DNA of 38,426 nucleotides from Bacteroidales bacterium. GTDB lineage: Bacteria > Bacteroidota > Bacteroidia > Bacteroidales > UBA932. The stretch spans positions 1 through 38,426 of the forward strand of contig JAFZXU010000057.1 in NCBI GenBank assembly GCA_017616655.1, given 5' to 3'. Position 1 is the stretch's first letter, and each line of letters starts with the position of its first letter. Positions 3,575-10,030 of this stretch are shown one piece after another. The position numbers were made by a program, and so were the translations under genes. Under the pieces are notes generated by a model. The model was given only the letters and a program-made list of their open reading frames with translations, was not told the origin of the DNA and did no database searches.

Positions 3575-3592
3575 AGAAACCAAACTTCTCTG

Positions 3593-3600
3593 CAAATTTA
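3593..3600 (-). promoter_or_regulatory. rlmN -7 promoter element
   Basis: On the minus strand this reads TAAATTTG, an exact match to the Bacteroidetes TAnnTTTG element, about 19 nt before the preferred ATG. No clear -33 TTTG is seen. Confidence 0.65.
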
Positions 3601-3617
3601 TGAAATAATACTTATAG

Positions 3618-3672
3618 TTGCCCTCCCTCTTATGTTGCCGAGGGTGGCACGGGTTTTCAGGGGAATATCCGC
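3618..3672 (-). repeat. Partial copy of the palindromic element found inside fumarase
   Basis: Read on the minus strand, 3650 down to 3621 is identical over 30 of 30 bases to 9120-9149 inside the fumarase gene. Similarity continues upstream through a GCGGAT(TA)TTCCCCT segment at 3651-3672. Only the left half of the element is present; the cccacggc hairpin, the gtccgc hairpin and the right arm are missing. It lies between the divergent rlmN and recA promoters. It shows the fumarase sequence belongs to a dispersed repeat family. Confidence 0.85.
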
Positions 3673-3703
3673 TATTATTTTCTCGTTTTGAACGATTATT
3701 TGG

Positions 3704-8350: not shown

Positions 8351-10030
8351 ATGGAAGATTCCCGTTTCGACCTGATTCCCGGCTCTGAGAGCCTTGTTTC
8401 GGTTGCCGAATTTGAAGGCAAGCCGATGCTGAAGGTGGCTCCCGAGGCGCTTTCCATCCTCGCCGAGAATGCTTTCCGTGAGGTGGAGTACAAGCTCCGC
8501 CCTGCCCACAACGCCAAGGTGGCGGCAATTCTCTCCGACCCGGAAGCCTCTGAAAATGACCGCTTTGTGGCTTTGTCACTGCTTCGCAACGCGGCCGTGG
8601 CCTCGAAGTGCCGCCTGCCCCTGTGCCAGGATACCGGCACGGCCATCATCTACGGCTGGAAGGGGCAGCAGGTATGGACCGGCGGAGGCGATGCCGCGGC
8701 CCTTTCAGAGGGGGTGAAGCGCGTGTTTGCCATGGAGCCTTTCCGCTACAGCCAAAATGCGCCGCTTTCGACCTACAAGGAGGTAAATACCGGCAACAAT
8801 CTTCCTGCGCAGATAGAGCTGGAGGCTGTGGACGGGATGGAGTATTGCTTCCTCTGCGTGGCGAAGGGGGGCGGCTCGGCCAACAAGACCCAGCTTTTCC
8901 AGGAGACACGCGCAATCCTTTCGCCGGAGAAGCTGGTGCCTTTCCTTTCAGATAAGATCAAGACTCTGGGCACCTCTGCCTGCCCTCCTTATCATATCGC
9001 AATAGTCATCGGCGGCACCTCCGCGGAGATGAACCTCAAGACCGCCAAGCTGGCATCCTGTGGTTATTATGACGGACTACCGTCGTTTCAAGCAGCAGCG
9101 GATTTCCCCTCTGAGAATTGTGCCACCCTCGGCAACATAAGAGGGAGGGGCCCACGGCTTGCCGTGGGAGGGGTCCGCGCAGCGGACATTCTCAGAGGGG
9201 ATGTCCGTTGCTATGAAACGACGGAATTGGCCTTCAGGGACACTGAGCTTGAAGCAATCTTGCTGAAAGAGGCGCGAAAGAGCGGCATCGGAGCTCAGTT
9301 CGGAGGAGTCGCCCTTGCTCACGATATCCGTGTGATCCGTCTGCCGCGCCACGGTGCGTCTTGCCCCATAGGGCTAGCGGTAAGCTGCAGCGCCGACCGC
9401 AACATCAAGTGCCGCATAGACTCCTGCGGAGTGTGGCTCGAGCGTCTGGACAGCAATCCCGAAAGGCTGATTCCGGCAGGGACTGAAACGGCCTCCAAGG
9501 GCGTTGAAATCAATCTCGACCGCCCTATGGCGGAGATTCTCGCAGACCTTCGGAAGTATCCTGTCGGTACCCGCCTGAGCCTTACCGGCACCATAATCCT
9601 GGCCCGCGACATAGCCCATGCGCGCATCGCAGAGCGTCTTGACAAAGGCGGCGAAATGCCTGCATATCTGAAAGAGCATCCGGTGCTTTATGCCGGCCCC
9701 ACCAAAACTCCGGAAGGTCTGCCCTGCGGTTCGATAGGGCCCACGACGGCCGGCCGTATGGACAGCTATGTGGAGCGCTTCCAGAGCCTGGGCGGTTCAC
9801 TGGTGATGATTGCCAAGGGGCAGCGCAGCGCGCAGGTGGCTGAATCCTGCAAACGTTACGGCGGCTTCTATCTCGGCATCACAGGCGGCACCGCAGCCCT
9901 CTTCGCCAGCGAAAATGTGGAGAGCCTCGAGTGCCTGGAATTCCCCGAACTGGGAATGGAAGCAGTCTGGCAGATCCGTGTCAAATCCCTTCCCGCCTTT
10001 ATCCTTATCGACGACAAAGGCTATATTTAA
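8351..10030 (+). CDS. Class I fumarate hydratase (4Fe-4S) carrying an in-frame palindromic-element insertion
   Basis: 559 residues; interconverts fumarate and malate in the central metabolic pathway (in anaerobes, mainly the reductive branch). Cluster cysteines appear at C92 (CQDTGTA), C211 ([12 protein letters not shown]) and C338 (HGASCPIG). The C92-C211 spacing of 119 equals that of E. coli FumA as I recall it (105, 224, 318). The next interval is 127 instead of 94. The excess of about 33 residues falls at about 245-290 (from PSFQAA through DVRCYETT), encoded by the palindromic repeat at 9080-9224. Flanking family sequence (YYDGLP before, [10 protein letters not shown] after) stays in frame. 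Last of the recX-prfB operon. Class assignment is certain; activity of the interrupted enzyme is not known. Confidence 0.93.
9080..9224 (+). repeat. 145-nt palindromic repeat element inside the fumarase reading frame
   Basis: The outer arms (9080-9118 and 9188-9224) are near-perfect inverted repeats: CCGTCGTTTC on the left matches GAAACGACGG on the right, and TCCCCTCTGAGAAT matches ATTCTCAGAGGGGA. Inside are three hairpins: CCCTC/GAGGG (9126-9145), CCCACGGC-TT-GCCGTGGG (9150-9167) and GTCCGC-GCA-GCGGAC (9173-9187). The reading frame passes through all of it without a stop. A 30-nt stretch (9120-9149) recurs at 3621-3650 in inverted orientation. This marks it as a mobile or dispersed repeat. 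Confidence 0.85.

What the first reader, a model, noticed from the sequence alone, without database searches (positions are those of the whole stretch)
9080..9224. A palindromic repeat element is translated in frame inside fumarase
The 145-nt sequence has near-perfect outer inverted repeats and three internal hairpins, and is read through without stops. Between the second and third cluster cysteines the protein has 127 residues, against 94 in E. coli FumA from memory, while the first interval matches exactly at 119. So about 33 net residues were added by the element. A 30-nt part of it recurs outside any gene at 3621-3650. This parallels the Rickettsia palindromic elements, which insert about 30-50 residues in frame into essential enzymes. 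I know of no description of such an element in Bacteroidales.
Basis: partly seen in the sequence, partly recalled or inferred. Interest (0 to 1): 0.82.

Follow-up and report, generated by a model that had tools for sequence, protein, structure and literature searches.

The report
Mobile palindrome translated inside enzyme genes
A small hairpin-shaped DNA repeat has spread through the genomes of uncultured Bacteroidales bacteria and sits, among other places, inside apparently intact enzyme genes, where it would be translated as an extra loop; at a few sites it seems to have made a mirror-image copy of the host DNA beside it.

Summary
Window 9080-9224 is a multi-hairpin palindrome (MFE z -9.3) read in frame in a class I fumarase. 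It adds 41 residues, not 33, against 26 of 28 relatives; none of the 28 carries it.
It is one copy of a repeat family: 43 places in its genome, 29 of 40 genomes of the genus, own included, 4 of 295 of the order, own included. An exact core scan of species genomes gave 74 stretches, all titled Bacteroidales/Bacteroidia.
A conserved core lies between arms that differ from copy to copy yet pair: positions 20-30 have almost no shared sequence but 57-85% pairing, shuffles about 27%.
It lies in frame in at least 16 gene families, both orientations, using all five open frames of the core.
At two sites (L102/L300, uvrA L313/L329) 10-17 nt of host flank occur once in the empty allele and again, inverted, in the filled one; three more sites suggest this, ten of 15 do not show it.
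Best reading: a palindromic mobile element, like Rickettsia palindromic elements in effect but not shown to be one, probably copied by fold-back synthesis.

The parts
8351..10030 (+). Class I fumarase gene (559 aa; PF05681 residues 38-354, PF05683 residues 360-557) that hosts the element
9080..9224 (+). Whole palindromic element (145 nt), fumarase residues 244-292
9080..9099 (+). Left outer arm, copy-specific
   Evidence: the division at 19 nt from the core follows the family profile and is approximate
9100..9118 (+). Left inner arm (19 nt), weakly conserved in the family
9119..9187 (+). Core with three hairpins (read by eye: about 9123-9148, 9151-9168, 9173-9187); conserved in the family
9188..9206 (+). 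Right inner arm, complementary to 9100-9118
9207..9224 (+). Right outer arm; translated ETT next to the native-looking ELAFRD, so possibly the host-derived side (inference from the protein alignment only)
3580..3673 (-). Second, incomplete copy of the family in the window; the right half of the core is not recognisable
   Evidence: 3621-3673; 3580-3670, 35.4 bits; does not fold like the others

Best explanation
This is a small non-coding mobile palindrome of Bacteroidales. The conserved part is a three-hairpin core flanked by about 15-22 nt of weakly conserved inner arm; outside this, arms of up to about 20 further nt are unique to each copy in many cases. It is found between genes and in frame inside housekeeping enzyme genes, where it can survive because five of the six frames of its core are open. 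I propose that it spreads by copying during replication or repair. A nascent strand copies arm and core; the new 3' end then folds back on the arm just made and is extended on the nascent strand into the adjacent host sequence, before returning to its template. That step would make an inverted copy of 10-20 nt of host flank and leave newly made arms well matched. Shown: the repeat family, the open in-frame insertions, empty sites, copy-specific paired arms, and an inverted flank copy at two sites. Inferred: the copying route, the lack of a dedicated transposase, translation, and tolerance by the host proteins. In the window's fumarase the event added 41 residues to the YYD-LP...AFRD loop.
For: Family and mobility: 43 places in the own genome; 29 of 40 genomes of the genus, own included; filled and empty orthologous sites. 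At the L217 site, of 13 aligned sequences 7 are empty, 3 carry a family member and 3 another short sequence. In-frame use: Pfam matches on both sides of, or across, the element in fumarase, MiaB-like, RibF, TruB, TilS, UvrA, RecG, YgiQ-like, GHMP kinase (IspE-like), RecR, AtpG, SpoU-type, UvrD-type and RfbB-type proteins, and in two stretches for RsmE and CutC. In RUG13108 nine of 14 distinct copies examined (18 places) lie in such genes. Five open frames, all used. Recurrent hits at one loop: uvrA carries it in L082, in L313 with other arms, and in L334 in the opposite orientation; atpG in L311 sense and L321 antisense. Arms: positions 20-30 carry 0.02-0.14 bits yet pair in 57-85%, all four pair types, shuffle means 25-28%, maxima 40-45% (65 arm clusters); 20 of 65 have at least 28 perfect pairs. 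Inverted flank copy: L102/L300 and L313/L329, with 1 of 79 and 0 of 79 null arms scoring as high (the one at L102 is probably its own duplicate locus L308). Plausibility: fold-back inverted duplications, most about 5-34 bp, are documented at yeast breaks (PMC11724301, abstract and passages).
Against: Of 15 filled sites tested against 35 relatives, two show the inverted host copy clearly and three suggest it (L272 right arm 0 of 79 against L280 but 7 of 79 against L281; L075 both arms 2 of 79; L179 right arm 4 of 79 against L231 but 46 of 79 against L230). Ten show nothing clear, among them L138 with 90-91% identical flanks and L217 with seven empty relatives. There the arms may have come with the element, or the host spacer has changed. 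At L313 the inverted copy has one extra base. Some subfamilies have arms shared between copies (G007), so arms can travel with the core. Y1 transposase genes occur in the genome, and one lies about 2 kb from an element on contig C47, so a protein-driven route is open. The pairing near the core is partly by construction, because copies were placed in register by aligning their arms.
Confidence: 0.55

Rival explanations
1. A REP/BIME-like or MITE-like element moved by a Y1 (RAYT-type) or other transposase acting on single-stranded hairpins; arm pairing is kept by selection on the hairpin.
For: Four PF01797 matches over the cut-off in the genome and one below it; the one at C47:3752-4000 lies about 2 kb from the element at C47:6043-6107. 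CGTC-type hairpins occupy the same intergenic site in G027 and G032. The core hairpins with GNA triloops look like stable ssDNA hairpins (recalled).
Against: No element was found by pattern in the fetched flanks (about 1.5 kb) of the five Y1 matches. Arms beyond position 19 have almost no shared sequence over 65 clusters. By eye, no direct target repeat stands out at L102 or L313. Inverted flank copies are not expected from cut-and-paste.
Confidence: 0.25
2. A structured RNA or bidirectional terminator family kept by selection, with some copies accidentally inside genes.
For: Strong fold and helices that vary yet pair; several intergenic copies lie just after stop codons (by eye).
Against: Both orientations and five frames inside genes; sites empty in relatives; host-derived outer arms at two sites; no Rfam family reached its threshold over the element in the five loci given.
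Confidence: 0.12
3. The inserted segment is a conserved protein domain of these enzymes.
For: It is in frame in the Pfam-supported cases, but these were chosen by being in open frames.
Against: Absent from 28 of 28 fumarase relatives; peptides differ by frame and orientation.
Confidence: 0.02
4. Assembly artefact, such as fold-back chimeras in metagenome assemblies.
For: All 74 records whose titles were seen are labelled MAG or uncultured bacterium; perfect inverted arms resemble amplification chimeras (recalled).
Against: The same truB insertion occurs in three records with different accession series and isolate names (L067, L072, L079); frames stay open; the window copy has mismatched arms.
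Confidence: 0.03

Closest known systems
Rickettsia palindromic elements (RPE)
   Same: Palindromes of about 150 bp, inside and outside ORFs, in frame in unrelated metabolic genes (PMC10969869, passages; PMC3733652, passages).
   Different: RPEs are said to encode a conserved peptide; here five frames are used. Host group differs. Copy-specific arms and inverted flank copies are not mentioned in the passages seen; the original RPE papers were not read.
Enterobacterial RU-1/ERIC, RU-2, RU-3
   Same: Small mobile sequences found fused in frame in 24 annotated gene loci (PMC2759123, abstract and passages).
   Different: The passages speak of a maintained repeat amino acid sequence, of large superfamily proteins, putative membrane proteins and hypothetical proteins. 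[quoted passage not shown] No sequence comparison was made.
GTAG- and CGTC-tagged REPs
   Same: Palindromic repeats; the CGTC type is reported in Bacteroidetes among others (PMC3733652, passages).
   Different: REPs are 20-40 bp palindromes; this is about 105-145 nt in most copies, with three inner hairpins.
Mitochondrial double-hairpin elements and GC clusters
   Same: Mobile hairpin elements in compact genomes (search listing only).
   Different: Organellar; mechanism and arms not compared.
Fold-back inverted duplications at DNA breaks
   Same: Inverted copies of adjacent sequence, most about 5-34 bp, made by hairpin priming (PMC11724301, abstract and passages).
   Different: Yeast, not tied to a repeat family.

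Membership tests
Rickettsia palindromic element | Palindromic, structured, about 100-150 bp repeat in many copies | tested here: met
Rickettsia palindromic element | In-frame insertion in unrelated protein genes as well as outside genes | tested here: met
   for genes; for an intergenic site
Rickettsia palindromic element | Encodes a conserved peptide in a preferred frame | tested here: not met
   five open frames, all used
Rickettsia palindromic element | Sequence homology to a described RPE family | not tested
   no RPE sequences were on hand; Rfam gave no relevant match
MITE | Conserved terminal inverted repeats | tested here: not met
   outer arms unconserved though paired over 65 clusters; some subfamilies do share arms
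MITE | Direct target-site duplication | tested here: inconclusive
   none evident by eye at L102 and L313; not counted over all sites; L217 shows CAT on both sides
MITE | Related full-length transposon | not tested
   only PF01797 was searched
REP/RAYT system | 20-40 bp palindrome with GTAG or CGTC tag | tested here: not met
   core plus arms is about 105-145 nt in most copies; a CGTC stands at the foot of hairpin 3 in many but not all copies
REP/RAYT system | Copies beside the RAYT gene | tested here: not met
   none by pattern in the fetched flanks (about 1.5 kb) of five Y1 matches; one element lies about 2 kb from a Y1 match
Known structured RNA | Match to an Rfam family | tested here: not met
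   five loci at E up to 1: one 5S and one tRNA match, and two microRNA matches on L002 far below their gathering scores

The most novel reading that the evidence does not exclude
A class of mobile palindrome without its own enzyme that spreads by fold-back synthesis at replication forks or breaks, rebuilding matched arms and taking an inverted copy of the host flank at insertion, so that a copy carries the mark of where it landed.
Probability: 0.4. Interest if true: 0.9.

Novelty: new variant of a known kind. Interest (0 to 1): 0.8.

Why it matters
Protein-coding palindromes are best known from Rickettsia, an intracellular genus (recalled, and PMC10969869 passages). Finding them in uncultured Bacteroidales, across at least 16 gene families and five reading frames, suggests that unselected insertions of some 35-50 residues in housekeeping enzymes are tolerated repeatedly, and at the same loops. 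The empty sites and copy-specific arms offer a way to test how such elements move, which I understand (recalled) to be unsettled.

Tried and rejected
Protein domain: rejected by absence in 28 relatives and by the five frames. Rfam: no relevant family. Y1 transposase neighbourhood: no element in the fetched flanks, one about 2 kb away. The idea that one arm is always host sequence: tested at 15 sites, clear at two. At uvrA L082 I first read the right arm as native from distant relatives; one search gives little support for either side there (best 5 of 79).

What was left out of counts. One search listed 45 long frames over the element; 30 were scanned. Seventeen had no Pfam family (L068, L080, L089 plus, L092 plus, L095, L096, L097, L099 minus, L109, L111 both strands, L116, L123 plus, L131, L003, L071, L135) and two had a domain on one side only (L086, L123 minus); these 19 were not counted. 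L072 and L079 were not scanned and are counted by their alignment with L067. L066 has its left match below the Pfam cut-off. From, one-sided L315, L318 and L322 and the family-less L263, L101, L116 and L109 were not counted. L313 has only weak Pfam support and rests on its uvrA flank match. In one search I gave 35 filled/empty pairs; fetched relatives that held other inserts, were filled, or were further examples of a tested site were not given, and the sites L092, L129, L116, L314, L322, L311 and L321 were looked at but not scored. L041 gave no usable fumarase frame.

Literature: searches for palindromic repeats in Bacteroidales, REP and RAYT in Bacteroidetes, rumen with Bacteroidales and palindromic or MITE terms and template switching with palindromes listed no description of this family; the library holds open-licence papers only and I saw listings. 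PMC186582 is not held. PMC11257099 held nothing relevant (passages).

Full report
THE OBSERVATION. The window is contig C27 of a 2.09 Mb genome in 73 contigs. The fumarase at 8351-10030 is open through 9080-9224, and Pfam finds its two fumarase domains at residues 38-354 and 360-557. The element folds far better than shuffles (z -9.27, 0 of 200). One search found fumarase in 36 of 61 genomes, own included; 29 relative loci were fetched (L032-L060) and 28 gave a usable frame, L041 did not. None of the 28 has the insert. The net gain is 41 residues against 26 of them; the other two, L032 and L040, have a shorter loop. The L. major fumarase structure 5l2r has 6 residues where 47 stand here.

A REPEAT FAMILY. 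DNA search of the own genome gave 42 matches, including matches of the element's arms to each other; a covariance model built from 11 copies gave 43 places at E up to 0.1. In the genus 29 of 40 genomes, own included, have a match at E up to 1e-5 (at most 76 candidates per genome were scored, so copy numbers are lower bounds). In a draw of 295 genomes of the order, 4 have one: the own genome, one other genus of the family and two other families (stricter filters). An exact 29-nt core pattern in the collection of 84,980 species genomes gave 74 stretches, all 74 titled Bacteroidales or Bacteroidia; 34 titles name a ruminant or its forestomach, 28 carry RUG names (rumen genomes, as I recall), 11 SRR bins and one UBA genome say no source. 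The tool warns that records of the window's genome or near ones may be left out of that scan.

ANATOMY. The core holds three hairpins and is about 59-83 nt in most copies, 50-161 over those measured. Hairpin 2 varies (CCCACGAAGTGGG in many); in L017, L018, L019 and L021 it holds about 50 nt of extra hairpin, in L011 about 100 nt. From the loci then held, 153 distinct copies were collected and 145 had alignable arms. Pairing is at least 78% out to position 19 and falls to about 25% by position 40. Of these, 120 were in one register and collapse to 65 clusters of different arms. At positions 1-19 arms pair in 82-100% of clusters, partly by construction since arms were aligned to set the register. 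At positions 20-30 they have nearly no shared sequence, yet 57-85% pair, against shuffle means of 25-28% and maxima of 40-45%. Twenty of 65 have 28 or more perfect pairs. In G007 many copies share arms with an internal loop, so arms can also be inherited with the core.

IN-FRAME INSERTIONS. Among 28 own-genome loci examined (of 43 places), two lie in Pfam-supported genes: fumarase (L001) and a MiaB-like protein (L002). Among the 74 other loci, twelve are supported on both sides of, or across, the element: TruB (L067 and L130 by Pfam, L072 and L079 by alignment), RibF (L117, L133, and L066 with a weak left side), TilS, UvrA, RecG, a YgiQ-like protein and a GHMP kinase. More came from later fetches: RecR, AtpG, RsmE, SpoU-type, UvrD-type, RibF and UvrA in RUG13108 or RUG470, and RfbB-type and CutC in two congeners. 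In RUG13108, nine of 14 distinct copies examined are in such genes and two more have a one-sided match; in the own genome it is two of 28, so the share varies. These cases were found by looking for open frames, so they do not measure how often insertions break genes. The consensus core is open in five of six frames and each of the five is used: [16 protein letters not shown] (fumarase, TruB), [15 protein letters not shown] (UvrA L082, TilS), [15 protein letters not shown] (MiaB-like, YgiQ-like, SpoU-type), [15 protein letters not shown] (RibF L117 and L133, CutC) and [15 protein letters not shown] (RecG, RsmE). No single peptide is preserved. UvrA carries it at one loop in L082, L313 (other arms; a separate insertion or a diverged copy) and L334 (opposite orientation, hence separate); AtpG in L311 and L321 in opposite orientations.

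EMPTY SITES. At the L217 site 13 sequences were aligned: seven are empty (five join the two genes as CCATTAAGG or CCATTACGG, two have two or three more bases), three carry family members, and three carry other short sequences, two of them CGTC-type hairpins. In RUG13108 and RUG470 (G341 and G065), uvrA L313 reads CCTT-CAGCTCAGCCTGAGGGG-[inner arm, core, inner arm]-A-CCCCTCAGGCTGAAGCTG-GATCC, and the empty L329 reads CTTT-CAGCGAAGTCTGAGGGG-TCC (14 of 17 alike): the 17 nt occur once in the empty allele, and the filled allele adds their inverted copy with one extra base. L102 against L300 shows the same for TTCTCCGAGG. Against arms of 79 other copies, 0 and 1 score as high. L272 (right arm 0 of 79 against L280, 7 of 79 against L281), L075 (2 of 79, both arms) and L179 (4 of 79 against L231, 46 of 79 against L230) lean the same way. 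Ten of 15 sites do not: L309, L138, L106, L125, L217, L269, L265, L181, L258 and L082. The host side was left at L102 and L313 and right at L272 and L179, which a copying event on either strand would allow.

MECHANISM. Fold-back synthesis would explain copy-specific matched arms, the inverted flank copies and the lack of an evident fixed target in one step. It is inferred, not shown, and ten of 15 sites give it no support. Short fold-back insertions are known at yeast breaks (PMC11724301, abstract and passages). A Y1 transposase route remains open because four such genes pass the cut-off.

COMPARISON AND NOVELTY. In effect this works like the Rickettsia palindromic elements. It fails the one feature I could test that sets them apart, the conserved peptide, and homology was not tested. 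My searches list no description of it. I rate it a new variant of a known kind.

Noticed in passing
L297 (G018:C12:38020-38610): The RfbB-type gene that carries the family element in G011 (L258) has at the same loop in G018 what looks like a different palindromic insert with another core (by eye).
   Followed up: no
L220, L222 (G027:C8, G032:C10): CGTC-type hairpins (CGTCATTCCGGGCTTGACCCGGAATC) sit at the same intergenic site where other congeners carry the family element or nothing.
   Followed up: no
L282 (G028:C54:29720-30220): At the CutC site G028 holds what looks like the family's arms without a core; a deletion derivative or an earlier stage.
   Followed up: no
L011, L017, L018, L019, L021, L330: Larger segments nested in the core region of the element; those of L017, L018, L019 and L021 are nearly the same.
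   Followed up: no
G066 (several contigs, e.g. C2, C5, C27): The right flank of L112 matches many closely spaced places, suggesting short tandem or clustered repeats.
   Followed up: no
window 3580-3673 (L013): A second, truncated copy of the family lies in the window.
   Followed up: partly
L101, L102, L107, L113, L125, L138: Intergenic copies appear to lie between convergent genes, just after stop codons (by eye; not counted).
   Followed up: no
RibF linker (L066, L117, L133, L317), TruB (L067, L130), UvrA (L082, L313, L334), AtpG (L311, L321): The same loops or linkers are hit repeatedly, some with opposite orientation, so they look like natural permissive sites.
   Followed up: partly
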